A stretch of DNA of 44,805 bases from Candidatus Saccharimonadia bacterium (GCA_023262335.1 JALRBE010000002.1:296-45100); one strand, 5' to 3'; shown: positions 16,785 through 39,299, counted from the stretch's first letter. Numbers and translations are program-made. Notes: generated by a model from the letters alone, not told the origin.

Positions 16785-17392
16785 GAATCATTGCCAGTCT
16801 GGCAGGCCTTGTCGTCATTGTCGGCCTTGCCGTTTCCGGAATTAGCGCGTACTTAGCACCAGACGGCTTGAGTCACTGCGACCAAACGCCGTCTGCAAAG
16901 CAGGATTGCGGCAAGGTTGACGCCATCGTGGCGATAAGCGGCGGCGACACGTCGGCGCGCACCGGTCAGGCTATCGAGCTGTATAAAAACGGTTGGGCTG
17001 ACACGTTGATATTCTCGGGCGCTGCCCAAGACAAATCCGGCCCAAGCAATGCCGAGGCCATGAAGCGCCAGGCGGTTTTGGCAGGGGTGCCGCTCGCGAA
17101 CATTCTTATAGACGAAACGAGCGAAACGACGAAACAGAACGCCGCCAACGCGACGGGGCTCTTGCAAAGCAATGATATCCATTCCGTTATTCTCGTGACA
17201 TCGGCCTACCATCAGCGCCGTGCCGGTCTTGAATTCGGCCAGCGCGCGGGAAGCGCCATTCGTATCGTCAATCATCCGGTCGCGGCAGACAACCAATGGT
17301 CTCCGTGGTGGTGGACGACCCCAACGGGATGGTGGCTGGCCCTCAGCGAGCTTTTCAAGGTGACCGTGTTTTATGCCGGGGGCACGCGATGA
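16781..17392 (+). CDS. YdcF/SanA-like DUF218 protein
   Basis: N-terminal TM; DAIVAISGGDTSARTGQAIELYKNGWADTLIFSGA...ILIDETSETTKQNAANA...VILVTSAYHQRRA. Confidence 0.8.
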   Translation: MRIIASLAGLVVIVGLAVSGISAYLAPDGLSHCDQTPSAKQDCGKVDAIVAISGGDTSARTGQAIELYKNGWADTLIFSGAAQDKSGPSNAEAMKRQAVLAGVPLANILIDETSETTKQNAANATGLLQSNDIHSVILVTSAYHQRRAGLEFGQRAGSAIRIVNHPVAADNQWSPWWWTTPTGWWLALSELFKVTVFYAGGTR

Positions 17393-18429
17393 CGAAAGTG
17401 TATGTTGGCATGAGCGGTGGCGTCGACTCGAGCTTGACGGCCGCGTTGCTTGTTGAGCAGGGGTACGAGGTAACCGGCGTCTACATGAAGAACTGGACCC
17501 AGGATCTTCCGGGCCTCAAGTGCCCATGGGCGGACGATTTGGCGGACGCGAAACGGGTGGCGGTGCAGCTCGGCATCGACTTCGAGGTGTTCGACTTCGA
17601 AAACGAGTACAAGCAAAAAGTCGTCGAGTACATGATAGACGAATACAAACTCGGCCGAACGCCGAATCCGGACATCATGTGCAATCAAGAAGTAAAGTTC
17701 CGTTTGTTCCTTGACGCGGCGCTTGCCCATGGAGCGGATATGATCGCGACGGGGCATTATGCCCGGGTTCAGGATGGAATACTGCAGTTGGCGAGCGACG
17801 CCAATAAGGATCAGACGTACTTCTTGTACCGCGTTACCAAGGAAGCGCTCGACAAGACGCTGTTTCCGCTTGGGGAATACTCGAAGCCGGAGGTGCGAAA
17901 AATGGCGGAAGAACGAAACTTGTACACGGCAGCAAAGAAAGACAGCCAGGGTATTTGCTTCGTCGGGCAGATCGGCATACGTGATTTCTTGCGACAGTAC
18001 GTTGACCCTGAACCGGGTGATATCATCGACAAACAAACGGGCAAAAAATTGGGGCGTCATGACGGAGCGATATTTTACACGCTCGGTCAGCGTCACGGCT
18101 TGGACATCGGCGGCGGGTTGCCGTACTACGTGGTCGGCAAAGACATGGCTTCGGGCGAGGTATACGTCACCCGTGATTTGAACGATGACAGTCTTTGGAG
18201 AAAAACCATCGAACTATCGTCGGTGCATTGGATCGGCCGCGAAGCGCCTGACGGCAGGTATCAGGTACGTATCCGGCATCGGGCACCACTCGTAGGTGCC
18301 GAACTGAAGGCCGGGACGCTTGTTCTGGACGAGCCGCAGCGTGCGGTGACCGCGGGGCAATCCATCGTCGTGTACGACGGCGAAGAATGCCTCGGTGGCG
18401 GTATCGTTGGGTTCGCGCCTAGCCGGTAA
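17389..18429 (+). CDS. mnmA: tRNA-specific 2-thiouridylase
   Basis: MTKVYVGMSGGVDSSLTAALL, GRTPNPDIMCNQEVKF, ATGHYAR, KDSQGICFVG. ATGA overlap with previous gene sets the start at 17389. Confidence 0.95.
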   Translation: MTKVYVGMSGGVDSSLTAALLVEQGYEVTGVYMKNWTQDLPGLKCPWADDLADAKRVAVQLGIDFEVFDFENEYKQKVVEYMIDEYKLGRTPNPDIMCNQEVKFRLFLDAALAHGADMIATGHYARVQDGILQLASDANKDQTYFLYRVTKEALDKTLFPLGEYSKPEVRKMAEERNLYTAAKKDSQGICFVGQIGIRDFLRQYVDPEPGDIIDKQTGKKLGRHDGAIFYTLGQRHGLDIGGGLPYYVVGKDMASGEVYVTRDLNDDSLWRKTIELSSVHWIGREAPDGRYQVRIRHRAPLVGAELKAGTLVLDEPQRAVTAGQSIVVYDGEECLGGGIVGFAPSR

Positions 18430-19741: not shown

Positions 19742-19742
19742 G

Positions 19743-20411: not shown

Positions 20412-20452
20412 ATATCTAGTATACAAGAACCAGCCGACGTATAATGGAAAGG

Positions 20453-22763: not shown

Positions 22764-24058
22764 GATGCCTGCCTTTCTTTTCGTGCTACGTGGCTCCTGT
22801 GTATGACGACCATGATGCCGCCGGCAAACACGGCGAGGAAGCTTCCGATGAGCCAGCCCCAGCCTACGCCCAGTAGTCCGTACGGCTTGGCAAGCAGCCA
22901 GCATAAAACAATGACGCCAATGGCGTTAACGATAGGGGCGACCAAAAGGAAGAAGAGGTTTTTCGTCAATTTGAAGTATGCACCGATCGCGGCGTACAGC
23001 GATACGGCAATGCCGCTGACGCTAAGAAGGCATACGAGAAGATACGAGCCGTCACGGTACCCGGGCCCGAACGCGCTCAGCACGAACGGTGCGACGATGA
23101 TGATCGCGAAGATTGCCGGTATCGTGATTGCCATGACGATCTTGATGCCACGCTTCAAATGCAGCATCATGTTTTCTTCGTCATGAGTCGCTTCGGCCAT
23201 GATCGCTTGGACCGTCGAAAACGCGATGGTATAGAGCAGGCTGGCTATGGTGAACGCTATGTAGAAATACGCGGCAGCGCTCGGTCCGATTTCGTTGACG
23301 ACGATTAACGGCAACAGCGAATCAGGCGCGAGGTTAAGCAGACTGGCAACATATGTCGCGAATCCGTAGCGGTAGGTTTGCTTCAGTACGTTGCCTGAAA
23401 CTTTGAAAGAAGGCCTATATCCTGTCTTCGCGATGATTACCCACATGCTGAGCACGACGTTGATGACCTGCGCGATACCGACGATGATGAATATGACCAT
23501 GGGGTCGTCACCGCCAATGACGAACGGTAGTACTAACTTGGCAAGACTGAATACGATATTGATTATCAGTACGGGTCGGCTGTTATGGTTGGCAACGAGT
23601 ATCGCGGTCGTCAACGTGTTCCATGCGGTGAATATGGTGAACACGGCAAACGCCGCGATCGTCAGCGGCGATTCGGCAACGAACGCGATAGACGGCGATA
23701 TGAACGGAACGATCATGCAAAATGCCACGGATAGCAGGCCTGTGATGATCGCGTTGACTAACAGTCCTGTATTGATAAGCTCGTTTCGATTGTCGGCGCG
23801 AGCGAAGAACCGCGCGAATATCGTATCGAATCCTATCAGCCCGAACAACGATACGAACATCGACATGGACAGCAGGGTCGTCGCCAAGCCGACTGTCTCG
23901 GTATCGAACATCCGCGCGACGATGATCCAGAATACGAATCCAGCCAACGAAACCGCCGCCATGGACAGCATGAGGTAGAGGGAACTTGACAACAGGCGGT
24001 CTTGTCGCAGTGCCTTTAGTCGGTGAATGCTTTGTCGTATCATTTCTGGATTACCCAT
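22760..24058 (-). CDS. Polysaccharide flippase/Wzx-like membrane protein
   Basis: About 12-14 hydrophobic segments; SLYLMLSMAAVSLAGFVFWIIVARMFDTETVGLATTLLSMSMFVSLFGLIGFDTIFARF. Confidence 0.85.
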   Translation of the reverse strand: MGNPEMIRQSIHRLKALRQDRLLSSSLYLMLSMAAVSLAGFVFWIIVARMFDTETVGLATTLLSMSMFVSLFGLIGFDTIFARFFARADNRNELINTGLLVNAIITGLLSVAFCMIVPFISPSIAFVAESPLTIAAFAVFTIFTAWNTLTTAILVANHNSRPVLIINIVFSLAKLVLPFVIGGDDPMVIFIIVGIAQVINVVLSMWVIIAKTGYRPSFKVSGNVLKQTYRYGFATYVASLLNLAPDSLLPLIVVNEIGPSAAAYFYIAFTIASLLYTIAFSTVQAIMAEATHDEENMMLHLKRGIKIVMAITIPAIFAIIIVAPFVLSAFGPGYRDGSYLLVCLLSVSGIAVSLYAAIGAYFKLTKNLFFLLVAPIVNAIGVIVLCWLLAKPYGLLGVGWGWLIGSFLAVFAGGIMVVIHRSHVARKERQAS

Positions 24059-26259
24059 GCCGTACTCGTACCGTTTGAGTATATTTGGTTTATCTCCTGT
24101 TCTGGTCGAGTCACTTTGTAATAGTAGAGGTTACTGTTTAGGTTGATCATATACGCATTTTTAGCTACATTGATGCCATCATTAAAAACGTAAAGTCCAT
24201 CAGTGTTAACCATCGGGCTTGCAATTATCAACTTTTTTTCGCAGTTATTAAGGAATCGCGAGATCGCGTATTTGTCTGCAGCAACAGAGCGTTCATTGTC
24301 GCGGTTGTCACACAGCCATTTACCTGCCTTCTTTTCTGCATCTGTAGAATAGTAAGCGTCATATTGAAATCCGTTATTATTTAAAGCTAGTTGGGGTGCC
24401 GCTCCACCAGTTATCTGCGGGATAAAACCACTCAAATGTAAGAACATAAGTGACATAAACCCGGCTGCAGCTATGTATGTTTTATGATTGTGGCGGATGA
24501 ATCTTGATAGGATCCATAAAATTGCTCCAAGAATTAAAATTGCAAGCATAGTAAGTAATTGTTGAAACATTCGTAAAAGACCGTACTCTACCGACAATTG
24601 GGGCAAGACTGTTATAAGTATGAGTAGTGCCACGCCGGATCCGCAAACAGAGAGGATGAAAAGACTGTAGCGGCTTGATGGTCTGCGTAATAAATCATAA
24701 GAAAGTACTACGAATCCTATAACTAAAAGTATTTGAAACAGCCTCGATATTCCATTTCTAATGTTTGTGTTGAGACTTTCTATAGATACTATGTCGTCAA
24801 GAGGTTTCAACGTATCTGACACCGGTAATTTCTGTTCATTGATTGCTTCGACTTTAATCCCTCCTTTTAAGTATGGCTCAGCATAACTTTGGAGTACGTT
24901 CTGAATATCAAACGATTTTCCTGATAGAATATACTGAACTTCAGATGCCTGGCTCCATTGTCCTGATACAAGACTTGTGAACGTCTTTGTAACTGTATTC
25001 CCTAAGCCGCTCGTGGTTTTGGTGATAACGCCATTCCAAAGTAGCACAAAGACACAAGCAATAATTATCAGAGGAAGGTTTAGAATGGGCAGGGTACGCA
25101 ATTGGCCCTTTCTATCTTCTTTTTTCATCATACGAATGAGAATTTTACTTAGGAGCCAAGCAATGATTAGCAAGCCTAGAGTTACGTATGTAGTTGAATA
25201 GTGGGAAAGAGTCAGGCCAAGGAATACGAAGCCTGTCAAAATGAATAGTTGTTTTCTATCCACATTTAACATCATGAGAAGAAGGAGCATTCCAAAAAAT
25301 AGAAATGCTATTTCTTGTCTGTTAAGCATCGGCATGTCATTTAGGAAAGTGGGAAATGATATAAAAAGAAAACCTGCGAGTAGGGCAAAAGTAGCTCCCC
25401 CGAAACGCTTGGCGATTGAGTAGACAGGAATTACAGATACGGCAAAAATGAGCTGAAATACTACCTTATATATGTATGGATCATAAATGCCAGTTATCTT
25501 TGCCAGAATTGTTGGAAGGATCGTAATACTAAGACAGGCGTTATACGTGTCTCTCAAGCTTCCGATATTCCAAAAGCTATTTTGCATGGTCATTTGAAAG
25601 ACATTGAATTCATGTTGAATGTCATGTCCTGTGATGCCCCACCCTCTCAGTGATATTGAGAACAAAATTGACAACGCGAACATTACAAGGGCATAGGGAT
25701 AATAATTCGAAAGATTCTTTTTTATTATTAAAATAATAAAGATAATGGCAATCGACGCGAACATGATTAAAGTCAAGATATTTGATGCGCCGTTGTTGAG
25801 TCGCATAGCACCTAAGACGCCAAGAAGAGGTAATAGACTCAAAAGTAAAATGATCAAAGCTTGTTTGCCAAAACCACCGTTCCTTTTTAGAGTAGTCGGT
25901 AGGTTGATGTCATATTTTCTTATGCCGAAACAGAGCATTGCGATAACTAGCGAAAGGCTAATAAAGATAGGAAGTGTATCGAGTGGTCGTTGTAGGCCGA
26001 TATAATAAAGTGAGTTTAATATCAGGCCTGTTAGCATTAGGATAAGAATGCTAAAGCCAAGCGAGAAGGAGAATGTCTCCCATTTTCGCCAGTGTGTTCT
26101 ATTGAAATGTAATACGAAAAGCCATCCAGGTACAAAAAGAAAGAAACCAAGAATTATAGTCCAGCTGATCATGTTCTGCAGAGGAAATGAAAGCACTGAT
26201 ACTAGCAAGCCGATCGCGACCAGTTTCCAAGCCCTAATTTTATTATCACGCAGTATCAT
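24040..26259 (-). CDS. Large polytopic membrane protein, DUF2206-like (possible GT-C-type glycosyltransferase)
   Basis: 739 aa, many TM helices; RGWGITGHDIQHEFNVFQM...FPTFLNDMPMLNRQEIAFLFFGMLLLLM; markedly AT-rich. Confidence 0.75.
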   Translation of the reverse strand: MILRDNKIRAWKLVAIGLLVSVLSFPLQNMISWTIILGFFLFVPGWLFVLHFNRTHWRKWETFSFSLGFSILILMLTGLILNSLYYIGLQRPLDTLPIFISLSLVIAMLCFGIRKYDINLPTTLKRNGGFGKQALIILLLSLLPLLGVLGAMRLNNGASNILTLIMFASIAIIFIILIIKKNLSNYYPYALVMFALSILFSISLRGWGITGHDIQHEFNVFQMTMQNSFWNIGSLRDTYNACLSITILPTILAKITGIYDPYIYKVVFQLIFAVSVIPVYSIAKRFGGATFALLAGFLFISFPTFLNDMPMLNRQEIAFLFFGMLLLLMMLNVDRKQLFILTGFVFLGLTLSHYSTTYVTLGLLIIAWLLSKILIRMMKKEDRKGQLRTLPILNLPLIIIACVFVLLWNGVITKTTSGLGNTVTKTFTSLVSGQWSQASEVQYILSGKSFDIQNVLQSYAEPYLKGGIKVEAINEQKLPVSDTLKPLDDIVSIESLNTNIRNGISRLFQILLVIGFVVLSYDLLRRPSSRYSLFILSVCGSGVALLILITVLPQLSVEYGLLRMFQQLLTMLAILILGAILWILSRFIRHNHKTYIAAAGFMSLMFLHLSGFIPQITGGAAPQLALNNNGFQYDAYYSTDAEKKAGKWLCDNRDNERSVAADKYAISRFLNNCEKKLIIASPMVNTDGLYVFNDGINVAKNAYMINLNSNLYYYKVTRPEQEINQIYSNGTSTAWVIQK

Positions 26260-27352
26260 AAACGCCTCCTACTTGTATGGCGACTTTTCCCCAACTATAC
26301 TCATCGGCAAGGCTCCTGGCTGAACGGCTCATTGATTGGTATGTGTCGGGATCGTGAACAAGCGTGTCCACGGCTTTGGCGAAGGCGTGCGCATCGTTCA
26401 GGCCAACAAGCAGTCCTGTCTTTGATTGCTTGACGACGTCTCGCGTGCCTTCGACGTTCGTCGCGACGATGGGCAGCCCCATCGCCATCGCTTCGAGCAG
26501 TACTAACGGCATACCTTCGCGGTCTGACGTCAGGACGAATATATCGGCGTTTTTGTAGAGCGATAAAAGTTCGGGGCCGTTTTTGCGCCCGACAAAATGA
26601 ACGTTAGTAAACTGCGACGTTTTGACTTTTGCAGATAGCTCCGCTTGTTTGTCGCCGCTTCCCACGAGCGTCGCGGTGACGCCGGACGTGACATGTGACA
26701 AGCTGTCGATGAGCATGCCGACGTTCTTTTGCGCTTCTAATCTTCCCACGAACAGCAGCCGGGCAGGCTCGTGAATCGTTCGAGGACTGTCGTAAAAGAA
26801 CTCGGGCGCCACGCCATTCGGCACGACATGGACGTTCTTTTTTGCAACTCCGTATTTGTTCATGACAAGCGACGCGTGAGCGTCGGAAAAAACGATGATG
26901 GCATTGGCTCTGCGCAAAGTGAGAGGGAACAACAACTTTTTATACAGCGAAAACAAAAAACCGAAAGGCCCTGACGCTGCGGCATCGACATGAAAATGAA
27001 TGATGAATTTCGAACGCCGCAAGCGCGCGGCGATAAGCGCGATTTCGGGAACGAATGCCTGCGCGACATGACAGTGAAGTACCGATGCGACCGGTTGCGC
27101 GAGCAAACGGAAAAGGAGGCCAGGTATGATCGGCACGTTCGCGATCTTTGCTCCGGCTAGACGAGATACCTTGTAGCCATTTACTTTTTTGTCGGAATAG
27201 GTAGCGTCGTACCCGACGTTCGACGTCACGACTTCGACCGAATGACCTGTCCGCGCTTGTTCGACGGCCAGATACTCAACGACCTTCTCCAAGCCCCCGA
27301 GCGATGGCGGATAGTACGCGCTCACGTGGATTATCTTCGGCTTGCTCGTCAC
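26246..27352 (-). CDS. Glycosyltransferase, GT4-like
   Basis: KPKIIHVSAYYPPSLGGLEKVVEYLA...LLFVGRLEAQKNVGMLIDSL...DREGMPLVLLEAMAMGLPIVATNVEGTRD. GTG at 27352 overlaps the upstream TGA (GTGA). Confidence 0.9.
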   Translation of the reverse strand: MTSKPKIIHVSAYYPPSLGGLEKVVEYLAVEQARTGHSVEVVTSNVGYDATYSDKKVNGYKVSRLAGAKIANVPIIPGLLFRLLAQPVASVLHCHVAQAFVPEIALIAARLRRSKFIIHFHVDAAASGPFGFLFSLYKKLLFPLTLRRANAIIVFSDAHASLVMNKYGVAKKNVHVVPNGVAPEFFYDSPRTIHEPARLLFVGRLEAQKNVGMLIDSLSHVTSGVTATLVGSGDKQAELSAKVKTSQFTNVHFVGRKNGPELLSLYKNADIFVLTSDREGMPLVLLEAMAMGLPIVATNVEGTRDVVKQSKTGLLVGLNDAHAFAKAVDTLVHDPDTYQSMSRSARSLADEYSWGKVAIQVGGVYDTA

Positions 27353-28305
27353 GACGCAAGCTCCGCTCTGAGCGTTTGCCTGAACGACGGCCTGCTCGCA
27401 AGCTTCGCCAGGCCTATGCATATGCCGATGCTCCAATACGTGTTTTTGATGCACCAAGCCAGAAATGACAAATGCCAGAGTCGCAGGGATAGGCGCTGCG
27501 TAACGATCGTTACGCCGGTCTGTGCGATTGGCAGCAAGAAAATCATCACGATAGCTGGCGGATACAAACACGCGAGCGCAATGCTGAAAAGACCGTACGC
27601 CAAAGGGACCGCGTCGACAGGCCGGAACGCACGGGTCGCGTAGGAGAAATAGAGCTTCCATGTGCCATACAAATACGTCTGCTTGCCGTAGCCTGGAATC
27701 GTGTCCCGCGTCGAATGGAACACTTCGAGGTTCTCGATGAATTCCCACGCGTGGGTCCGCTCCACCCGAGCAGCGAACTCGATGTCTTCGCCATTGACGA
27801 ACGCCTCGTTGAAATACGTGTCGGTCAGGACGTCACGATTGATCGCGCTGTTGCAGGTGCAAAATTGTAAGATGCCTCCGCCAAAAAGCGAGCGCATCGT
27901 ATCGTCGTTAGCTGCGATGGCTTGGGCGAATTTTGTGCGGTAGGACGTCGTTTGTTTGCCAGAAATCATCGCCAAATCCGGCTGTGTCGCGAACGTATGG
28001 CGTATCGTCGCGACCCAGTCGGTACTGACGGTGTCATCGGAATCGACGAACGCGCAGATTCCTTTCTTGACCTTTTCAAGCGCGATGTTGCGTCCATGGG
28101 GTATGTTGTGCGTACCGTTTTTGTACACCGTAATGGCTAGTGACGCGCGATAGTCGCGGACTATCTTTAGCGTGTCATCGGTCGATGCGTCGTCGATGAT
28201 ATGAACGGAAAAGCCAGGGTCGGTTTGGGTGACCAGCGAATCCAAGCAGGCGCGGATGGTCTTGCTGCTATTGTACGTAAGGATAGAGACGGTAATCGAT
28301 TTCAT
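27349..28305 (-). CDS. Glycosyltransferase family 2
   Basis: MKSITVSILTYNSSKTIRACLDSLVTQTDPGFSVHIIDDASTDDTLKIV...FVDSDDTV. Confidence 0.9.
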   Translation of the reverse strand: MKSITVSILTYNSSKTIRACLDSLVTQTDPGFSVHIIDDASTDDTLKIVRDYRASLAITVYKNGTHNIPHGRNIALEKVKKGICAFVDSDDTVSTDWVATIRHTFATQPDLAMISGKQTTSYRTKFAQAIAANDDTMRSLFGGGILQFCTCNSAINRDVLTDTYFNEAFVNGEDIEFAARVERTHAWEFIENLEVFHSTRDTIPGYGKQTYLYGTWKLYFSYATRAFRPVDAVPLAYGLFSIALACLYPPAIVMIFLLPIAQTGVTIVTQRLSLRLWHLSFLAWCIKNTYWSIGICIGLAKLASRPSFRQTLRAELAS

Positions 28306-29414
28306 CGTCGTACCTCTTCGTATAACGCGGCCAATCGTTTGGCATGGACATCGAGGCTGAAATGCTTTACGGCATACGACCGAGCATGGCTGCCTATTTT
28401 CGCCAAGCCGTCGTTTTCGAGTACTGACTGCAGCGTCGATACCGTCGGTTCAATGAGGGTAATCTCGCGCTCAGACAAACGGTAGAGGTCGTACGCAGGG
28501 TCGTTCGTCGTGACGACGGACAATCCGCTTGCCATGGCTTCTTGGATTGTCATTGGAAACCCTTCGCCTTCGGAGGGAAGGATGAACCTGTCGACGGCTC
28601 GGTAGAGGAGCGGCATTTCGTCGTGATCAACTTTGCCAAGGTACATGTGATTCGCCCTTGCCGTTCCGGCAGGCGCGTCGCCGCCGGCAAAGGCGAGCAC
28701 CGAGCCGGGTTTGACAGAAAGTTTTTGGAGCTTCGTAAATCCTTTTTTGGGAACGAACCTACCGACGAAAAGCGTGACGGTTTTATTGAGCGGCAACCGG
28801 AATTTTTTCCGTAGTTCAGTCACTTCTCGTTCGTTTTCGGCAGGCCTGTACAAGGCGGTGTCTATGCCGTTGGGTAAGAACGTTATTTTCGCCTCTGGAA
28901 CGTTTTTACTTCGTAAGAAATCATGGACGCGTGAATTAAGCACGACGATCCGCTTGCTCGTGGCGAATATGAATCGCCCCGTCGTCGCGTAAACGGCCTT
29001 TTGGACGAACATGACAAGCGACGAAGGGTGTGGCACAAGGTCGACATGTTGAGTCATGACCATGGGTGTTCGCAGAACTCGGCACCAAAACGCGGCAACG
29101 AGCGAGGTCAGGTAAAAGCCGTCATGCACATGTACGATGTCGGACTCTTTGACGACGCGATAGGACGCGGTAATGAGCGACGGCGCGAACAGCGGGAACA
29201 CTGCCCCCATTTTTTCTTCGAACCAATTCCAGACCGGAATACGCGAAATAACAACATGCGGGTCCTGCTGGCTTTCGCTTGGCGTGCCGTACGCGCTGGT
29301 AACGACGCGCACGGAATGGCCCTCCGCTGCAAGCGCGCGGATCTGGTTTTCGGCGACCGTTTCGATGCCGCCGATATGCGGGGGGAGGAAAGTGACGAAT
29401 ATTCCGATTTTCAT
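28302..29414 (-). CDS. Glycosyltransferase, GT4-like
   Basis: MKIGIFVTFLPPHIGGIETVAENQIRAL...VTLFVGRFVPKKGFTKL...PSEGEGFPMTIQEAMASGLSVVTTNDPAYD. Confidence 0.9.
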   Translation of the reverse strand: MKIGIFVTFLPPHIGGIETVAENQIRALAAEGHSVRVVTSAYGTPSESQQDPHVVISRIPVWNWFEEKMGAVFPLFAPSLITASYRVVKESDIVHVHDGFYLTSLVAAFWCRVLRTPMVMTQHVDLVPHPSSLVMFVQKAVYATTGRFIFATSKRIVVLNSRVHDFLRSKNVPEAKITFLPNGIDTALYRPAENEREVTELRKKFRLPLNKTVTLFVGRFVPKKGFTKLQKLSVKPGSVLAFAGGDAPAGTARANHMYLGKVDHDEMPLLYRAVDRFILPSEGEGFPMTIQEAMASGLSVVTTNDPAYDLYRLSEREITLIEPTVSTLQSVLENDGLAKIGSHARSYAVKHFSLDVHAKRLAALYEEVRR

Positions 29415-29456
29415 GCGGGAGCAGGGACTTTCTGCCGTTCGGGCGGTTAGGTAGTA

Positions 29457-30245
29457 TTACGCTTGTTCAGCGTTCCGTGATTCGGACCTCGCTTGCTGCC
29501 TGCCGGACGGCCGCCACTGCAAGGTGCTAGCGAACATGCGCAGGATCCTCGCGCCGTCACTTATTGGGTTGAGGTTGGATTCGCCTGCCCGGGGCGTGTA
29601 GCTGATAGGCACCGAATAAATGTCGTACTTCATGCGTGCCATTTTGGTGATCATTTCCATTTCGATCGCGAACCCGTCCGAGCGCAAATGCGGACGCAGT
29701 TCGTCGAGTGCTTGCTTGGTCCAGGCAAAATAGCCGGTCAGCACGTCGGTCACGGGCACCTTGTGCGTGACGCGGACGATGTTCGTGAAGAACCAGTTGC
29801 CGACGAAACTCGTGAAGCTCATCGAGTCTGCGGTGCGTTTGCCGCCCATGCGCGAACCGATGACGACGCTGCAGAACTCGTTGTACAGCGGCTCGATCAT
29901 TCGGAGTACTTCGCCTGAATCATACGTGTCGTCCCCATCGAGCATGACCACGAAGTCCGTGGTTTCGGGCAAACTGGCAAAGCCGGTCCGCAGCGCGTTG
30001 CCCTTGCCTTTCTTTGGCTCGTGGATGACCGTCGCGCCGGCTTGCCGGGCGACTTCGGACGTGTTGTCGCTCGAGTTGTTGTCGATGACATATACATGGA
30101 GATTCCAGTGATTGCGCTTCGCCCGCTTGTAGGGCATTTTCTTTATGACGTCAGCGATGCCTTTGGCTTCGTTGTAACAAGGAATGATGACCGCTACTTC
30201 GTACATTTTTTGGTCGTTTCGTTTTATGCGTGCGATTCTAGCCAC
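29457..30245 (-). CDS. Glycosyltransferase family 2, polyprenyl-phosphate glycosyltransferase-like
   Basis: MYEVAVIIPCYNEAKGIADVIKKMPYK...VIDNNSSDNTSEVARQAGATVIHEPKKGKGNALRTGF...VMLDGDDTYDSGEV. Confidence 0.9.
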   Translation of the reverse strand: MARIARIKRNDQKMYEVAVIIPCYNEAKGIADVIKKMPYKRAKRNHWNLHVYVIDNNSSDNTSEVARQAGATVIHEPKKGKGNALRTGFASLPETTDFVVMLDGDDTYDSGEVLRMIEPLYNEFCSVVIGSRMGGKRTADSMSFTSFVGNWFFTNIVRVTHKVPVTDVLTGYFAWTKQALDELRPHLRSDGFAIEMEMITKMARMKYDIYSVPISYTPRAGESNLNPISDGARILRMFASTLQWRPSGRQQARSESRNAEQA

Positions 30246-30742
30246 TAGTTCACCTCCTTCGTATTATTTAACCAATATGAAATTTCAAGGTTTCTGTCTT
30301 TGTTCGGGTCGTTGGTCGGAGCGCTAACGATAACCCTGAGGCGGGTCGGCGTGCCCATGTCCTGCGGTATGACGGCCGGGCTGTTCGTTCGTCGCTCGGA
30401 CGTATCCAGCTGAAGGTCTCCGGTAAGAAGCCGTACGGTCTTTTTTGCTTCCGGGTCGGTTTGCTCGATGACATACGTGTACCGTGCGGGCGCCGACTCA
30501 CGGTTGCGCAGCGTGAAGTTAACGGTCATTGCCGTCCCGGGAGTGTAGGTGCTTGGGATGGCTGTCGGATCGGTAAAATAGAGCTCGCTGACGTTCTCTT
30601 GTTCCGGCCACGCGCCAATCGCGCTCAACGCGGATTGCGTCACGCCGCCAGCGTTCATGACCGCTGCTATCACGATGCATGGAATAATGACACCTGCCCC
30701 AATAGAAACGGCTCTCGCCGGAAGTTCCTGCTTCCGTTTAAT
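30245..30742 (-). CDS. Membrane-anchored protein resembling the extracytoplasmic part of DUF1616; proposed ATT start
   Basis: The frame stays open upstream of the track GTG (30673): IKRKQELPARAVSIGAGVIIPCIVIAAVMNAGG..., preceded by GGAGGAGGGAGAA. The GTG start would cut the TM helix in half. Confidence 0.55.
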   Translation of the reverse strand: MKRKQELPARAVSIGAGVIIPCIVIAAVMNAGGVTQSALSAIGAWPEQENVSELYFTDPTAIPSTYTPGTAMTVNFTLRNRESAPARYTYVIEQTDPEAKKTVRLLTGDLQLDTSERRTNSPAVIPQDMGTPTRLRVIVSAPTNDPNKDRNLEISYWLNNTKEVN

Positions 30743-30932
30743 TTCTCCCTCCTCCGTTTTTAAGTGGTGTTGTCGCGGTGGGGAGCTGCTGCTCCGTAGC
30801 TACACCCCAAGTCTACCTGTAACGCCGAGCGCGTAATATGAAATAAATCACACTATTCAGGTATGGCGTGATCCGGCAGAGCATGGTATCGCGCATGCGT
30901 ATAGGTTAGTTGCGAACGTTCCAACGCAACCG

Positions 30933-30946
30933 ACCGTGCTCACGGT
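30933..30946. repeat. Short inverted repeat ACCGTG-ct-CACGGT
   Basis: Perfect 6+6 bp dyad between the divergent glycan operon and the tail-fibre-like gene. Confidence 0.5.
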
Positions 30947-31063
30947 TGCATCCGATGGGTGCCGCTTGTGGTAAAATAAGACGCACAATCAGTGACGAGG
31001 GAATGAAAGAACTACTACCGGGACGGCATCATAGGAGCACTCGTTTTGACTACGGAGGTTTTC

Positions 31064-32953
31064 GTGGCTAGATTACCGATGCCTGGCAGCGATAACGGCA
31101 CTTGGGGTGACATTCTTAACGAGTATTTGTCGCAAACGCTGAAGTCGGATGGCACGATCAAAGACAATGCCGTGACGACGGCGGCGATCGCTCCGAATGC
31201 CGTGACCGCGACTGAGATCGCGCCGAACTCCGTGACCGCAACGGAAATCGCCGCGGACGCGGTGAGCGCGACGCAGATACAAGACGGCTCGATTACCGAA
31301 GCGCAATTGGCAGCGGCGGTACAAACCAAACTTAATTCGGTCGCAGGCACGTCGGAATGGGGCGATATAGGCGGTACGCTTGGCGACCAGGCCGATCTGG
31401 CTTCGGCGCTCACTGCCAAGGCGCCCGTGGCCAACCCTTCGTTCACCGGTACCGTGACGACGCCGTCCCTTACGCTGACGGGTGGTACTCCGGGTAGTGG
31501 CAAAGTGCTGACGAGTGACGGCAGCGGCAACGCTACGTGGCAGACGCCGTCCGCGAGCGGAGCGGTGACATCGGTGGCAGGCAAGACCGGGGCTGTCGTG
31601 TTGGCGCAGTCGGACATCACGAATTTGGCGACCGATCTGGCAGGCAAAACGAGCGCCGCGATGCTGACGAACAAAGGCGACATGTACGCAGCGACCGCGA
31701 CCGCGACGCCTGCTCGCGTGGGCGTGGGATCAGACGGCCAAGTACTGACTGCCGACAGCACGCAGGCAGCCGGAGTCAAATGGTCAACGCCCGCGAGCGG
31801 CAGCGGTGCCGGGTATGCCGCGAACGTCGGCAACGGTACTTCCGGACCTTATACAATCACGCATAATCTTGGCACGAGAGACGTTTCGGTGCAGGTATAC
31901 AAGAACAACGGCACATACGAACAAATAATGGTGCGTACTGACCGCGTGACACCAAACACCGTGGTGCTGAGGCCGGATGAAACATGGACGACGAACCAGT
32001 ACCGGGTTTTGGTGACGTTCGTCGCCCAGTCCGACGTGACCGCTCCAACCGCGCCGACGCTTGCCATGACCGGATCGACGATCTCGTCCGTGTCGGTCAT
32101 CGCGTCGGGCGCCTCGGACGCGAGCGGCATTGCCGGGTACAACTGGTTCGTCGGCGCTTCGTTCGTGGCGACCACGACCGGGACTTCGTATACATACACC
32201 GGTTTGAACGCGGCGACGTCATACGACTTCACCGCGACGGCCATCGATCATGTCGGCAACGAGTCCGTCCCGTCGGCAACGCTCACGCAGGCGACCGAAT
32301 CGCCGTCGAACGTGGTCTTCGATGCCAAAGGCGCGGGCGGGACGTCCACCTCGACTGCCGCGGCAAGCAAAACGACCAACTGGACCCACGTGGTCAGTGA
32401 CGGCGCGAACAGGTATCTTGTCGTCGGAGTCGTCGTGAGCCACTCGAATTCAATCGATCCGGCAGCATATAGCACGATGACTGTCACGTCGAACCAAGGC
32501 GGCACGTTCACGCGCCTGGGGTATAGGGTGATCGGATCGAACCAGGGCAGTGTGAACCTGTTCGGCTTGGCGAATCCGACGGTCGCGACGCATACGTTGA
32601 CGGCAACGGTCAGCAATACGCAGTGGAGCGACAGGATAATGGGCAATTCGCTGTCGTATTTCTTCGTTGGCAGCGTGGGTACGCCGGTAACGGCGGGCGC
32701 GACGAACGCAGCCATGAACCTGAGCGTTTCGAGCGCCACGGGCAACATGGCCGTCGGCCTCGGCGGTTTCAGCGCGAGTCCTACCGGGTTCAACCAGACT
32801 TTGCAGCATAGCGCGGGCAGTTCGGTGAACGGCATGGGTGACTACATGATTCTGGGCCATGCCGCTGGCGCGTCAACGGTCGCGTTCACTACGAGCAGTG
32901 CCGCGCATACGTACGGCGCTATCGGCATCAACCTCATAAAGGCAGGGGTATAA
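31064..32953 (+). CDS. Phage tail-fibre-like / fibronectin-III-like modular protein
   Basis: MARLPMPGSDNGTWGDILNEYLSQTLKSDGTI; decapeptide repeats; VTSVAGKTGAVVLAQSDITNLATDLAGK; YTITHNLGTRDVSVQVYKNNGTYEQIMV; FN3-like segment DVTAPTAPTLAMTG. GGAGG 5 nt upstream of GTG 31064 (track uses TTG 31046). Confidence 0.75.
   Translation: MARLPMPGSDNGTWGDILNEYLSQTLKSDGTIKDNAVTTAAIAPNAVTATEIAPNSVTATEIAADAVSATQIQDGSITEAQLAAAVQTKLNSVAGTSEWGDIGGTLGDQADLASALTAKAPVANPSFTGTVTTPSLTLTGGTPGSGKVLTSDGSGNATWQTPSASGAVTSVAGKTGAVVLAQSDITNLATDLAGKTSAAMLTNKGDMYAATATATPARVGVGSDGQVLTADSTQAAGVKWSTPASGSGAGYAANVGNGTSGPYTITHNLGTRDVSVQVYKNNGTYEQIMVRTDRVTPNTVVLRPDETWTTNQYRVLVTFVAQSDVTAPTAPTLAMTGSTISSVSVIASGASDASGIAGYNWFVGASFVATTTGTSYTYTGLNAATSYDFTATAIDHVGNESVPSATLTQATESPSNVVFDAKGAGGTSTSTAAASKTTNWTHVVSDGANRYLVVGVVVSHSNSIDPAAYSTMTVTSNQGGTFTRLGYRVIGSNQGSVNLFGLANPTVATHTLTATVSNTQWSDRIMGNSLSYFFVGSVGTPVTAGATNAAMNLSVSSATGNMAVGLGGFSASPTGFNQTLQHSAGSSVNGMGDYMILGHAAGASTVAFTTSSAAHTYGAIGINLIKAGV
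31169..31318 (+). repeat. Five tandem decapeptide-coding (30 bp) degenerate repeats
   Basis: AVTTAAIAPN/AVTATEIAPN/SVTATEIAAD/AVSATQIQDG/SITEAQLAAA. Confidence 0.75.
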
Positions 32954-32954
32954 C

Positions 32955-34340
32955 ATGGCATCAATCCATTCCGCGTCGAATATCTCCTCGCCGTCCGGCA
33001 CACTGCTGACTGCCGCTACCATACCGAAGCAGCGCATCGCGCTCGGGTCGCTCATGCGTCCGATGAAGGGCGTTTGGCCAGCTCCGGACAACACGAACGG
33101 ACCGCTGACGGGAGACACGGGCATCGCGTCCGGCACGCCGACGACGACCGGCATGACGTTGTACGGTTGGGATTCGGGAGCGTTCAATACGCAGTCGCAG
33201 CATTGGGTCGTGACACCCACGGGTACCGGTCAGAACACGTCAGGATATTCCGCGTGCATCAATGCCAGCACGCCGCGATTCTACACGTACGGCTACATGC
33301 AAAACCAGCCTCAGGAATCGAACATCGATTTCAGTTTCGTGACCGATTCGACGAAGGTGACGATCATGTATTACCGCAACAACTCGTATCAGAACTTCAA
33401 TTATCCGAACCACCAAGACATGCAGGTGTACGCCGAATATCAGGGCGAGATGCGCAAGCTGAATCAATTGCCGATCACGTACTCTGGCGGCAGTGGCATT
33501 TATTACCGGACGCTGACCATGCTCGAAGCACGTACGTTGGAATACCGCGTGATGCTGCCTATGGACTGTTGGCTGATTGGCGTATACATAAATACCACCG
33601 CGTCGATCCGCAAAGCGCCGAACAAGCCGTTCATCATTACGAACGGCGACTCGTGGAACGAGCCGAGCGGCAACGCCATCAAGGACCCGGTTGGCGGGGC
33701 GTACCCCACGGGAACGTACAGGGTTGCCGGCCTTTCGCAGATGATCGCCGAAGCGACGGGGTTCGCGGTAGCGCTCTGCGCCCAAGGTGGATCCGGCGAA
33801 TTCAACGTGAACGACGGCGTGTCGCATGACCAGACGTACGTGTCATCGACGGGCATGAGTACCTTTCATGGCCAAAGCCGTATCGACGACATGAGCGCGA
33901 AGTTCTTCGCGCGGAGTCCTATAGTATGGACCATTGGCGGGTGGAACGACGATACGCTTGCCGGCGTACCGTACCGGACGAATTACCGTGACCGCGTCGT
34001 TGCTGGCATTGACCGTATGGTTGCCGCCAAGTCTGACATTCAGCTCATGTACAGCAGCGTGCAACCGGTCAGCATAACGCCGGGCGACGCGCACGAGCTC
34101 GGCGCGCTCGGTCAGGCGGACGCGTGCGCATTGCGTCCGAACAATGTCATCGGGTTCATCAACCAAATGCCAATGTGGCCGAACACGACCATGAGCGGCC
34201 AGCGCGGAGCCAATGTCAATTCCACCGACACGATCCACTTGCATATCAAGGGATCCGAAATGGTGGCTAACTGGAACCTGGCTGAGGCTGCCAAGTTCAC
34301 GATTCCGCTCGACTATTACAATGCCATGCTCGCCGCCTGA
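32955..34340 (+). CDS. SGNH/GDSL-type hydrolase with N-terminal beta-rich region
   Basis: Block I NGDSW (GDS codons 33645-33653), block III GWND (33939-33950), block V DTIH (34227-34238). Starts 1 nt after the preceding stop. Confidence 0.75.
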   Translation: MASIHSASNISSPSGTLLTAATIPKQRIALGSLMRPMKGVWPAPDNTNGPLTGDTGIASGTPTTTGMTLYGWDSGAFNTQSQHWVVTPTGTGQNTSGYSACINASTPRFYTYGYMQNQPQESNIDFSFVTDSTKVTIMYYRNNSYQNFNYPNHQDMQVYAEYQGEMRKLNQLPITYSGGSGIYYRTLTMLEARTLEYRVMLPMDCWLIGVYINTTASIRKAPNKPFIITNGDSWNEPSGNAIKDPVGGAYPTGTYRVAGLSQMIAEATGFAVALCAQGGSGEFNVNDGVSHDQTYVSSTGMSTFHGQSRIDDMSAKFFARSPIVWTIGGWNDDTLAGVPYRTNYRDRVVAGIDRMVAAKSDIQLMYSSVQPVSITPGDAHELGALGQADACALRPNNVIGFINQMPMWPNTTMSGQRGANVNSTDTIHLHIKGSEMVANWNLAEAAKFTIPLDYYNAMLAA

Positions 34341-34379
34341 CGGTTGGATTGATTCTTTACCTCTGTTACAATGGACGTA

Positions 34380-36329
34380 ATGAATACCGAAACCATCCGC
34401 AACGAATACCTGAAGTTTTTTGAAGAGCGCGGCCATGCCGTGATCAAGCGTGCGCCGCTGGTGCTGCACGACGACCCGACGACGCTGTTCACTGGCAGCG
34501 GCATGCAGCCGATCATTCCTTATCTACTGGGCGAGCCGCACGCCGAAGGCAAGCGCTTGGTCGACAGCCAAACGTGTCTGCGCGCGCAGGACATCGACGA
34601 CATCGGCGACAACCGCCATACGACGTTTTTCGAAATGCTCGGCAACTGGAGCATGGGCGATTACTTCAAAAAACAACAGATCGAATGGATGTTCGAGTTC
34701 CATAAGGACGTCGTTGGGCTGGACCTGAGCAAGCTGTACGTGACCTGCTATATCGGCGACGACCGTTACGATATTCCAAAGGACACCGAAGCGGCGGACG
34801 TGTGGGCAAAGCTGTTCGCGGACGCAGGCCTGAGCAACGGCGTGCAGGATATCGGCAGCGAAGACGACGGCTATGCCAAGGGCATGGAAGACGGCGCCCG
34901 CATATTCTTTTACGACGGCAGCAAGAACTGGTGGTCGCGGAACGGCGCGCCCGAAAGCACGCCGATCGGCGATCCATGCGGCCCCGACAGCGAAATGTTT
35001 TATTTGTTCGACCAAGTCGAGCACGACCCGTCGTTCGGCGAGCACTGCCACCCGAACTGTGACTGCGGCCGGTTCATGGAAATCGGCAACAACGTCTTCA
35101 TGGCGTACAAAAAGGTCGCCGACGGCAAGTTCGAGGCGCTCGAGCACCCGAACGTCGACCACGGCAGTGGCCTGGAGCGCATCGCTGCTGCCAAGCTGAA
35201 TGACCCTGACGTGTATAAAATCAGCCTGCTATGGCCGATCATCGAAAAACTGCAAACGATCAGCGGCAAAAAATACGAAGATAACCTGGAGTCGATGCGC
35301 GTGATTGCCGACCACCTGCGAGCTGCGACGTTCCTGGCCGTTGACGGCTGCGTGCCGAGCAACAAGCAACAAGGGTACGTGATGCGCCGCCTCGTTCGCC
35401 GTGCCATGGTAAAGGCATTCGACCTTGGTGTTGAGCAGAACTTCATGGAGCAGATCGTGCCGGTCATTGCCGACCTTTACGTGAATGATTACCCGGAAGT
35501 CGCGGCAAAGCGTGAGGAAATTATTGCAGTGCTGATTAAGGAGGAGAAGGCATTTCGCCAGACGCTTCGCAAGGGCTTGAAAGAGCTTGAAAAAGTTGCG
35601 AACAACAAGACTTTCAAAGACGACTCTCCGCACGAGACGGTTCCAACTGAAAGTTGGGTGAACGGCGACATACTGTTTACACTGTATGACACGTACGGAT
35701 TCCCGCTTGAACTGAGCGTTGAGGAAGTCGCCAAGCAAGGAATTACTTTGTCTGAGGATTGGCAGCAAGAATTCGACGCCAAAATGGCCGAACAACGTGC
35801 TCGTAGCCAGACCGCGGCCAAAGGTACCTTCAAGGGTGGCCTTGGCGGGCAGACGCTCCAGCACAAGAAATATCACACGGCCACGCACCTTATGTATCAA
35901 GCCCTTCGCGACGTTTTGGGTGACCACGTGGTGCAGCGCGGCAGTAACATTACCGAAGAGCGTCTGCGTTTTGACTTCAGTCATGATCAAAAAGTGACGC
36001 CTGAGCAAATCGCTCAGGTAGAAGAAATCGTCACCCGCGAGATTCAAAAGGATCTGCAGATCAGTTGTGCTGAATACCCAACCGAAGAAGCAACCGGCCC
36101 GCTCGGCGCGCTTGGCCAGTTCGGTGACCGCTACGGCGACACGGTAAAGGTATATAGCATGAAGGACCCGAACGCGGACTCTGCGGACCGGCCGTTCAGT
36201 TTTGAGATTTGCGGCGGCCCTCATGTAGATCATACGCACGAGCTGATCGAAGACGGCAAGAAGTTCGTGATTCTCAAAGAAGAAGCTTCGAGCGCAGGTA
36301 TTCGCCGTATCAAAGCGGTACTTCGTTAA
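34380..36329 (+). CDS. alaS: Alanine--tRNA ligase lacking the C-terminal C-Ala/DHHA1 region
   Basis: RNEYLKFFEERGHAVIKRAPL, TCLRAQDIDDIG, FFEMLGNWSMGDYFK, HTATHLMYQAL, EICGGPHVDHT; 652 aa. TACAAT 34367-34372, 7 nt before ATG 34380. Confidence 0.96.
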   Translation: MNTETIRNEYLKFFEERGHAVIKRAPLVLHDDPTTLFTGSGMQPIIPYLLGEPHAEGKRLVDSQTCLRAQDIDDIGDNRHTTFFEMLGNWSMGDYFKKQQIEWMFEFHKDVVGLDLSKLYVTCYIGDDRYDIPKDTEAADVWAKLFADAGLSNGVQDIGSEDDGYAKGMEDGARIFFYDGSKNWWSRNGAPESTPIGDPCGPDSEMFYLFDQVEHDPSFGEHCHPNCDCGRFMEIGNNVFMAYKKVADGKFEALEHPNVDHGSGLERIAAAKLNDPDVYKISLLWPIIEKLQTISGKKYEDNLESMRVIADHLRAATFLAVDGCVPSNKQQGYVMRRLVRRAMVKAFDLGVEQNFMEQIVPVIADLYVNDYPEVAAKREEIIAVLIKEEKAFRQTLRKGLKELEKVANNKTFKDDSPHETVPTESWVNGDILFTLYDTYGFPLELSVEEVAKQGITLSEDWQQEFDAKMAEQRARSQTAAKGTFKGGLGGQTLQHKKYHTATHLMYQALRDVLGDHVVQRGSNITEERLRFDFSHDQKVTPEQIAQVEEIVTREIQKDLQISCAEYPTEEATGPLGALGQFGDRYGDTVKVYSMKDPNADSADRPFSFEICGGPHVDHTHELIEDGKKFVILKEEASSAGIRRIKAVLR

Positions 36330-37646: not shown

Positions 37647-39299
37647 ATGCAAAAAGACGTAATATACATCGATGTCGAAGACGACATCACCGCCATCATC
37701 AGCAAGGTCAAGGCCTCGAAAGAGAAAATCGTCGCCCTGGTGCCACCAAAGCGCATCGGCGTCTTGCAGTCGGCAGTCAACTTGCGCTTGCTCGCGCGGA
37801 CCGCGGACGGCGCGAACAAGCGCTTGGTGCTGATAACGGGCAATGCCGCACTCGGGAGTCTTGCTGCCAGCGCGAAAATACCCGTTGCCAAGAATTTGCA
37901 GTCGAAACCGGAAATCATCGCGGCTCCGGCCGCAAAAGCCATTGGTGATGACGATGTGATTGACGGGGAAGATGTGCCTGCGAGCAGCGGCGCGGACGAC
38001 GACGATGTCATCGTCGGTGCAGTGCCTCCGAGCAAGATCGAAGGTCTCGACATTGACGGCGAGAAGGACGCGCCAGCCAAACCCGCGAGCGCGCGCAAAA
38101 CGCCGGCCAAAAAAGGTATCAAGGTACCGGATTTCGGCACGTTCCGCAAAAAGGCGTTTTTGCTCGCCGGTCTCGGTATTTTTCTCATAGCGTTCCTTGT
38201 ATGGGCCATATGGTTCGCGCCTCACGCGACTGTCGTTATCAGTGCCAAAACGACCGATAGGGAGCTGAGCGTACCAGTGACGGTCGGTGCTTCCGTGACG
38301 ACCGACGTCGACCAGCAGCATCTGCAGTCGATCGAAAAGCAGAGCAAGGCGACGCAAACGATCGAGTTCGAAGCGACGGGCAAAAAGAACGTCGGCGAGA
38401 AGGCGACGGGCACGGTGAAGTTTTCTCAGCAGTCGTTGTCGCCCGCTACGGTCGCTGCCGGCACCCAACTGACCGCGACCGACGGCCACGTGTACGTGAC
38501 GAACGGCAGCGCTTCGATTCCTGCGAGCACTTTTGGCCCAGGTTGTTTCCCTGTGGCATGCCCTGGTACGGCGAGCGTCGGCATTACGGCTACTAACGGC
38601 GGTGCGGAGTACAACGGCGCAAGCGGTACCGTCACGGGTACGCCGTCTGGGGTGACCGCGCAAATCACCGGCTCGACGTCTGGCGGCACGGACAAAATGG
38701 CGGTCGTCGTGCTGCAGGCAGACGTCGAAAAAGCGAAGGCGCAACTTGCCGAACAGAACGCCGATGCCGAAAAGACGAAACTGAAAGACCAATTCGACGA
38801 CAAAGCCGTCGTCATCGATAGTAGTTTCAAAGTCACAGGCGGCGATCCACAATCATCGCCTGCCATAGGCCAGGAAGTCGCGTCGGGCAAGGCGAAGCTG
38901 ACCCAAGAAACGACATATACGATGGTTGGTATCGACGAGGCTCAACTGAAGGCATATCTTGATGAGGCACTGAAGAGCACGCTGACCGACGATAACGAGC
39001 AGAAAGTGTACGACAACGGCCTTTCTACGGTGAAGTTTTCGGAATTCGCGCAGAATGACGGCAGCCAAGCAGGCACGGTCAATCTTGAGGCGACGGCGCA
39101 GATCGGACCAAAAATCGACGACAGCGCAGTCAAGGAGATGGTCAAGGGAAAGCGCTATGGCGAAATCGAAGGCGACCTGAAGGCGATTGACGGCGTCAGC
39201 GGGGTTGAGGTCAAGCTATCGCCATTCTGGGTGCAAGCCGTGCCGGACGATATCAAAAAAATAACCGTTGATTTCAAGCTTTTGAAGAACGATGGCTAA
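37647..39299 (+). CDS. Membrane protein with baseplate-J-like extracytoplasmic region
   Basis: Cytoplasmic N-terminus, TM FLLAGLGIFLIAFLVWAIWFA, then VAAGTQLTATDGHVYVTNGSASIPAST...GTASVGITATNGGAEYNGASGTVTGTP, a baseplate-J-like pattern. Confidence 0.65.
   Translation: MQKDVIYIDVEDDITAIISKVKASKEKIVALVPPKRIGVLQSAVNLRLLARTADGANKRLVLITGNAALGSLAASAKIPVAKNLQSKPEIIAAPAAKAIGDDDVIDGEDVPASSGADDDDVIVGAVPPSKIEGLDIDGEKDAPAKPASARKTPAKKGIKVPDFGTFRKKAFLLAGLGIFLIAFLVWAIWFAPHATVVISAKTTDRELSVPVTVGASVTTDVDQQHLQSIEKQSKATQTIEFEATGKKNVGEKATGTVKFSQQSLSPATVAAGTQLTATDGHVYVTNGSASIPASTFGPGCFPVACPGTASVGITATNGGAEYNGASGTVTGTPSGVTAQITGSTSGGTDKMAVVVLQADVEKAKAQLAEQNADAEKTKLKDQFDDKAVVIDSSFKVTGGDPQSSPAIGQEVASGKAKLTQETTYTMVGIDEAQLKAYLDEALKSTLTDDNEQKVYDNGLSTVKFSEFAQNDGSQAGTVNLEATAQIGPKIDDSAVKEMVKGKRYGEIEGDLKAIDGVSGVEVKLSPFWVQAVPDDIKKITVDFKLLKNDG

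What the first reader, a model, noticed from the sequence alone, without database searches (positions are those of the whole stretch)
31064..34340. Orphan tail-fibre-like protein plus SGNH hydrolase cassette in an epibiont-type genome
Two adjacent genes (1 nt apart) resemble phage receptor-binding modules. The first is a repeat/FN3-bearing tail-fibre-like protein; the second is a hydrolase with GDS, GWND and DTIH motifs. No other phage gene is in the window, and neither protein has a visible signal peptide or TM. They sit directly after the surface-glycan cluster. Hypothesis: a domesticated tail-fibre/esterase pair used in host-surface attachment or glycan deacylation, or a remnant tail module exported by an unknown route. 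This is my best candidate for an undescribed system.
Basis: partly seen in the sequence, partly recalled or inferred. Interest (0 to 1): 0.75.

Follow-up and report, generated by a model that had tools for sequence, protein, structure and literature searches.

The report
Phage-like fibres linked to Tat export
These two genes belong to a scattered, swappable set of phage-tail-fibre-like proteins in tiny epibiont bacteria; gene maps tie the set to the Tat machine that exports folded proteins, so the cells may use it to display fibres that recognise and modify the sugars of the bacteria they live on.

Summary
The two genes are real: a fibre-like protein (31064-32953) and an SGNH-type hydrolase (32955-34340), with no leader or membrane segment. 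They are not an orphan and not a prophage. The fibre's first ~40 residues (MARLPxPGxDxGxWGxILNDYL...DGxLK) are a conserved head at Met1 of a multicopy family: about ten copies in this genome, 116 distinct members collected, with swappable tips (pectate-lyase and beta-helix folds, GDSL esterases, lectins).

The new result is the link to twin-arginine translocation. In 81 relatives, TatC and the fibre family coincide almost perfectly (35 both, 44 neither, 2 discordant). In a phylum-wide sample all 21 fibre-bearing genomes have TatC. Beside tatC, or directly upstream of fibres, sits a 55-85-residue protein: a Tat-type signal plus a GYGxxxYG tail. In a congeneric genome the orthologue of this very pair forms the operon tatA-tatC-small protein-fibre-SGNH.

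Best reading: folded fibres are exported by Tat in trans, carried by this small "escort" (hitchhiker export), and displayed as glycan-binding or glycan-cleaving tools against host cells. The genetic link is well supported. Export, head-tail docking and host targeting are inferred.

The parts
31054..31058 (+). Shine-Dalgarno GGAGG of the fibre gene, 5 nt before GTG 31064
   Evidence: sequence
31064..32953 (+). ORF1: tail-fibre-like protein, 629 aa
   Evidence: one of 116 distinct family members
31064..31165 (+). conserved N-terminal head (residues 1-34, MARLPMPGSDNGTWGDILNEYLSQTLKSDGTIKD); R3 L4 P5 D10 W14 G15 L18 N19 L22 G30 invariant in 98 members aligned from Met1
   Evidence: no significant Pfam, PHROG, NCBIfam or PDB match over this part
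31166..31348 (+). shaft repeats of the type NAVTxxxIAxxSV
   Evidence: sequence
31349..32041 (+). tail-fibre-like shaft and knob; head-decoration-like stretch at about residues 251-323
32042..32317 (+). FN3 domain (residues about 327-418)
   Evidence: 1k85 1.7e-8; most confident part of the AlphaFold model
32318..32950 (+). C-terminal domain, probably beta-rich, shared with the orthologue in G006
   Evidence: (low confidence)
32955..34340 (+). ORF2: SGNH-type hydrolase/tip protein, 461 aa
33645..33653 (+). SGNH block I (G231-D232-S233, nucleophile Ser)
   Evidence: invariant
33936..33950 (+). SGNH block III (GGWND; N331 and D332 invariant)
34227..34238 (+). SGNH block V (D425-T-I-H428)
17296..18429 (+). 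mnmA-like gene, left border of the variable site holding the cassette; in two congeners it abuts alaS directly
34371..36329 (+). alaS, right border of the variable site

Best explanation
ORF1 is a (probably trimeric) tail-fibre-like surface protein and ORF2 its esterase-like tip partner. They are one cassette of a genome-wide, swappable repertoire. Each fibre folds in the cytoplasm and carries no signal of its own. Its conserved N-terminal head is bound by a small 'escort' protein, a Tat-type signal followed by an aromatic-glycine tail (GYGxxxYG), encoded beside tatC or directly upstream of fibre genes. TatA/TatC then move the folded complex across the membrane in trans (hitchhiker export). 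The escort's uncleaved hydrophobic helix, or a neighbouring wall-type protein with the same YG motif, may hold the fibre on the surface. The exposed tips bind or edit the glycans of the bacterial host. Shown by computation: the family, its head, its multicopy dispersal, the absence of phage genes near it, the co-occurrence and linkage with tatC and the escort, the gene fusions, the SGNH residues. Inferred: trimerisation, Tat export, head-tail docking, surface display, host-glycan function.
For: Co-occurrence in 81 relatives: fibre+ 36, TatC+ 36, both 35, neither 44; Fisher 1e-20. Phylum sample: all 21 fibre+ genomes are among 35 TatC+ of 382. Present and absent together inside single genera: g8, g18, g36, g38. 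Linkage: fibre start within 1 kb of tatC in 16 of 51 tatC loci; escort within 500 nt of tatC in 37 of 51 against 1 of 12 TatC+/fibre- loci, and that one (G126) has a divergent head, MKQLPTIGDSNWGIPLNSYI, beside tatC. Escort directly upstream of 23 fibre genes. The orthologue of this very pair in G006 sits in the operon tatA-tatC-escort-fibre-SGNH. Own genome: escort, tatC and tatA at C3:13764-15278 and a second escort directly before another fibre; TatA confirmed by PF02416 2.7e-12. Escorts: first Arg and Phe of the Tat motif invariant in 36 of 36; TIGR01409 Tat-signal model above its cut-off in two; NF038009 'Tat system-associated protein' 2e-19 over the own escort. Tail type GFGxxKFG goes only with the second head type (6/9 vs 0/14). 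G058: the tail is grafted on a second TatA directly upstream of its only fibre. Tips: pectate-lyase 12, beta-helix 9, GDSL 7, DUF2961 5 of 77; partners LamG 5, GDSL 3 of 41.
Against: All functional links are genomic; nothing shows that a fibre crosses the membrane. Most escorts have RK or RQ, not RR; the own escort scores below the Tat-signal cut-off (13.6 vs 16.7 bits) and below the NF038009 cut-off (69.6 vs 100). A folded trimeric fibre of over 600 aa per chain would be a large Tat cargo. Most fibre genes, this one included, have no escort beside them and would rely on a shared one in trans. No escort was found in the stretches fetched for G016, G063, G088, G109 or L067, and only a degenerate one in G412. 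G076 has fibres but no TatC found; G008 has tatC and an escort but no fibre over threshold. TatC-negative genomes were not searched for escorts. The p-values ignore phylogeny. The AlphaFold models are poor (mean pLDDT 40 and 52).
Confidence: 0.7

Rival explanations
1. Domesticated or decaying prophage tail genes: phage receptor-binding modules acquired repeatedly, staying in the cytoplasm or released only on lysis, with no export system.
For: Tips and shafts resemble phage tail fibres and spikes; ORF2 is about 29% identical over 93% of its length to hydrolases of Gordonia phages Orla, Nodigi and Hexbug; related heads occur in three large Streptomyces phages; one own copy is frame-shifted.
Against: Intact multicopy family with a near-invariant head; the 25 best-represented Pfam families among 115 neighbours include no phage structural family; HK97 capsid absent in 18 of 18 genomes; Baseplate_J hits are partial matches to one conserved protein near alaS; strict association with tatC and the escort.
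Confidence: 0.08
2. The fibres are surface proteins but leave by another route (type IV secretion or type IV pili); Tat and the small protein are co-inherited for another purpose.
For: Some fibre genes lie beside type IV prepilin genes, and a pilin array occupies the same mnmA-alaS site in congeners; pilins flank fibres in Planctomonas and Sinomonas; TrwB-like ATPases lie near the Gordonia aichiensis and Solirubrobacteraceae copies.
Against: Pilins are abundant (3-45 per genome), so the adjacency in Saccharimonadia is close to what chance would give; pilins are present in fibre-free genomes (G024, G019); neither gives the near one-to-one profile that TatC and the escort give.
Confidence: 0.15
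3. The small Tat-signal protein is not a carrier but the fibre's membrane anchor, inserted by Tat or Sec, while the fibre reaches it by another route such as release from lysed siblings.
For: It is hardly more than a signal-anchor helix and a tail, and it pairs with head type.
Against: In G058 the tail sits on a TatA-like protein, whose C-terminus is cytoplasmic in known TatA (topology from general knowledge), which points to recruitment inside the cell; the linkage to tatC would then be unexplained.
Confidence: 0.07

Closest known systems
Tat hitchhiker export (signal-less subunits co-exported with a partner bearing a Tat signal, e.g. NiFe hydrogenases, PaoABC; PMC10924467, PMC4273604)
   Same: Cargo without a signal, partner with a Tat-type signal, TatA/TatC, folded cargo.
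   Different: The partner is a stand-alone mini-protein, one or two per genome, serving many dispersed cargoes that share one head; the cargo is a tail-fibre-like surface protein, not a cofactor enzyme.
Phage tail fibres and tail spikes (PHROG 892, 8780, 2234 etc.; pectate-lyase, GDSL and DUF2961 tips)
   Same: Shaft repeats, knob, enzymatic tips, bicistronic or fused tip proteins.
   Different: No virion, no tail; dispersed single genes in a bacterial chromosome; a head domain that no searched model covers; linked to tatC.
Gordonia phage Orla gp31/gp34 hydrolases
   Same: ORF2 is homologous over 93% of its length with the SGNH residues kept.
   Different: In the phage they lie downstream of the lysin and holin genes; here beside a fibre with a Tat-linked head.
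NCBIfam NF038009 (TatB_1, twin-arginine translocation system-associated protein)
   Same: Covers the escort over nearly its whole length (2e-19).
   Different: Below the model's cut-off; a held-library search for the accession found no paper.

Membership tests
Prophage / phage remnant | capsid or other structural genes linked to the fibre | tested here: not met
   no HK97 capsid in 18 genomes; the 25 best-represented Pfam families among 115 neighbours hold no phage structural family; dispersed copies among housekeeping genes
eCIS / tailocin | baseplate, sheath and tube genes | tested here: not met
   PF04865 only partial matches to one conserved ~550-aa protein near alaS; sheath and tube not searched separately
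Tat hitchhiker system | TatA and TatC encoded | tested here: met
   (own genome C3:14042-15278)
Tat hitchhiker system | cargo without a signal peptide | tested here: met
Tat hitchhiker system | linked partner with a Tat signal | tested here: inconclusive
   R and F invariant, hydrophobic stretch follows; TIGR01409 above cut-off in two escorts, below it in the own one
Tat hitchhiker system | co-translocation dependent on TatC and the partner | not testable with these tools
   needs an export assay
SGNH/GDSL hydrolase (ORF2) | catalytic Ser, Gly, Asn, His in blocks I, II, III, V | tested here: met
   G231-D-S233, G278-G279, N331, D425/H428 invariant; one relative reaches PF13472 at 1.9e-5
SGNH/GDSL hydrolase (ORF2) | SGNH fold | tested here: inconclusive
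   model pLDDT 40; no PDB profile hit
Phage tail fibre | sequence homology of shaft and tips | tested here: met
Phage tail fibre | part of a virion | tested here: not met
   no virion genes found

The most novel reading that the evidence does not exclude
A previously undescribed surface-display device: a Tat translocase, a stand-alone mini-protein consisting of a Tat signal and an aromatic-glycine tail, and an interchangeable repertoire of tail-fibre-like proteins that share a head recognised by that tail. Saccharimonadia would use it to put phage-like receptor-binding and glycan-editing fibres on their cells for host recognition, with two cognate head/tail classes.
Probability: 0.5. Interest if true: 0.93.

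Novelty: new variant of a known kind. Interest (0 to 1): 0.82.

Why it matters
How epibiotic Patescibacteria recognise their hosts is an open question; recent papers name type IV pili and a few adhesins and found no PrgB-type adhesin with their T4SS (PMC12206443, PMC10633639, PMC12102498). This gives a concrete candidate set of receptor-binding proteins per genome, with predicted glycan-active tips, and an export route that can be tested with two or three genes in a laboratory strain. It would also suggest what Tat is for in these reduced genomes (one paper called a soil species the only Saccharibacterium with a complete Tat system, PMC6031116), and it shows module sharing between actinobacteria, their phages and their epibionts. 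A stand-alone Tat signal working in trans on many cargoes would be new for the Tat field.

Tried and rejected
Prophage remnant: rejected. eCIS/tailocin: the Baseplate_J hits proved to be partial matches to one conserved protein about 4 kb past alaS. Type IV pilus link: looked promising at first but pilins are so numerous that the adjacency is near chance in Saccharimonadia. Conserved position of the cassette: rejected; the mnmA-alaS site is empty in two congeners and holds pilins in four. Plasmid origin: no match. Structure of ORF1 and ORF2: models too poor to use, so no fold search was run. Virus contigs: the search machine gave no answer four times, so uncultured viruses remain unsampled. 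Wide occurrence in Actinobacteria: only 1 of 300 genomes in the family of Planctomonas.

Full report
Observation. ORF1 most likely starts at GTG 31064, preceded by GGAGG, and ends at 32953; ORF2 runs 32955-34340; alaS follows at 34371. ORF1 is tail-fibre-like with an FN3 domain. ORF2 is hit significantly by no family model but is homologous over 93% of its length to the hydrolases of Gordonia phages Orla, Nodigi and Hexbug; the SGNH residues (S233, G279, N331, D425, H428) are invariant across eight relatives. Neither protein has a hydrophobic leader or membrane span.

Not an orphan. The first ~40 residues of ORF1 occur about ten times in this 1.13 Mb genome, in contigs C3, C22, C32, C36, C38, C43 and C44, each copy among housekeeping genes. 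In 81 related genomes 36 have the family, up to 13 copies each. I collected 116 distinct members; in 112 a start codon lies at the head domain itself, and no membrane segment or signal occurs near the N-terminus. Ten of the first 30 positions are invariant in 98 members, not counting Met1. Searches covering the head (Pfam, PHROGs, NCBIfam, PDB profile) found nothing significant for it. A second head type reads RLPIVxSDDGxWGDILRQYLxKEH.

Tips. Behind the head and shaft the proteins vary: among 77, 12 pectate-lyase/epimerase, 9 beta-helix, 7 GDSL and 5 DUF2961 matches, with PHROG tail-fibre, spike and minor-tail families throughout. Many fibre genes are followed within a few nucleotides by a partner without the head: LamG lectin-like, GDSL, CotH, polysaccharide deacetylase, GH26, esterases. 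The ORF2-type domain is fused to a headed fibre in three other genomes (L041, L111, L136), so the two genes very probably act together.

Mobility of the cassette. In the genus, mnmA and alaS abut in G003 and G006; four congeners carry prepilin arrays there; the window carries an ABC transporter, a glycan cluster and this cassette. The orthologous pair in G006 (57% and 67% identity) is on another contig than its alaS.

Not a phage. HK97 capsid is absent in 18 of 18 genomes, Baseplate_J matches are fragments of one conserved protein, and the best-represented Pfam families among 115 neighbours are housekeeping families, pilins and a few recombinases (only the top 25 of 85 families were listed). 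Heads like these occur in only four of 50,697 phage records, three large Streptomyces phages (BRock twice, pSt2308, GiJojo), and in single copies in a few Actinobacteria.

The Tat link. TatC turned up beside a Sinomonas copy and among fibre neighbours, so I tested it. In the same 81 genomes TatC is present in 36, of which 35 carry the fibre family; 44 have neither; G008 and G076 are discordant (Fisher 1.2e-20). In 382 genomes across the phylum all 21 fibre-bearing genomes are among 35 with TatC. Four genera contain both fibre+/TatC+ and fibre-/TatC- species, so the pattern is not only deep ancestry. These p-values ignore phylogeny.

The small protein. Next to tatC lies a protein of about 55-85 residues with a Tat-type signal ([DTS]R[KRQ]xF[LI] and a hydrophobic stretch) and a C-terminal GYGxxxYG. 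Arg and Phe are invariant in 36 of 36; two reach NCBI's Tat-signal model, and the own one matches NF038009 'twin-arginine translocation system-associated protein' at 2e-19 but below cut-off. It lies within 500 nt of tatC in 37 of 51 fibre-genome loci and in 1 of 12 TatC-only loci; that exception, G126, has a divergent fibre head beside tatC. Copies of it lie directly upstream of 23 fibre genes, including one in the window's own genome (C3, L014:4496-4708). The tail GFGxxKFG occurs only with the second head type (6 of 9 against 0 of 14; nominal p 8e-4). In G058 the tail is carried by a second TatA directly before the only fibre. In G006 the orthologue of this very cassette is the operon tatA-tatC-escort-fibre-SGNH. 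In Sinomonas, a cultured actinobacterium, tatC, escort, YG protein, fibre and SGNH gene lie together, as if moved as a unit.

Mechanism. The simplest reading is Tat hitchhiker export (known for hydrogenases and PaoABC; PMC10924467, PMC4273604): the escort tail binds the fibre head and the signal delivers the folded fibre to TatAC. Whether the escort is then an anchor, or hands the fibre to the wall-type YG protein encoded beside tatA, is open. Tips suggest binding and editing of glycans, which in this class would be those of the actinobacterial host; that last step rests on the lifestyle of relatives, not on data here.

Limits. No experiment; poor structural models; virus contigs unsampled; escorts not sought in TatC-negative genomes; many genomes are draft MAGs; the paper library is open-access only, and searches in it found no description of this association.

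Noticed in passing
window 18429-34371; L152-L158: The mnmA-alaS junction is a variable site in the genus: empty in G003 and G006, 4-5 type IV prepilin genes in G005, G007, G008 and G009, ABC transporter plus glycan genes plus this cassette here.
   Followed up: partly
window 37647-39299: Congeners' conserved ~550-aa protein starting MQKDVIYIDVEDD, about 4 kb past alaS, gives partial Baseplate_J (PF04865) matches; a likely source of misleading 'baseplate' annotation. G000 itself had no match over threshold.
   Followed up: partly
L013:15260-15592 (own genome), L182, L184, L186, L071:5413-5883: A wall-type protein with a YGxGxYG motif and a C-terminal anchor (APDTG-like, hydrophobic stretch, basic tail) is encoded beside tatA/tatC in many fibre genomes; it shares the aromatic-glycine motif with the escort.
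   Followed up: partly
L071 (Sinomonas cellulolyticus): Escort, tatC, YG protein, fibre, SGNH gene and a type IV pilin lie together in a cultured actinobacterium, apparently a transferred unit.
   Followed up: partly
L168:5280-5588 (G058): Second TatA-like protein ending GYGQQGYG, directly upstream of the only fibre gene, besides a normal TatA next to tatC.
   Followed up: partly
L015 (own genome C32:8725-8848): One fibre copy with an SGNH tip is frame-shifted within the head: pseudogene or assembly error.
   Followed up: no
L018, L019 (Streptomyces phages BRock, GiJojo): Lone fibre genes with a related head sit inside the tRNA gene arrays of these phages, away from the annotated tail module.
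   Followed up: no
L074:4924-5943 (Planctomonas deserti): A type IV prepilin with a carbohydrate-binding domain (CBM_4_9) lies directly upstream of the fibre-SGNH pair.
   Followed up: no
window 30245-30763: Fragment matching the C-terminal part of DUF1616 between the glycan cluster and the cassette.
   Followed up: no
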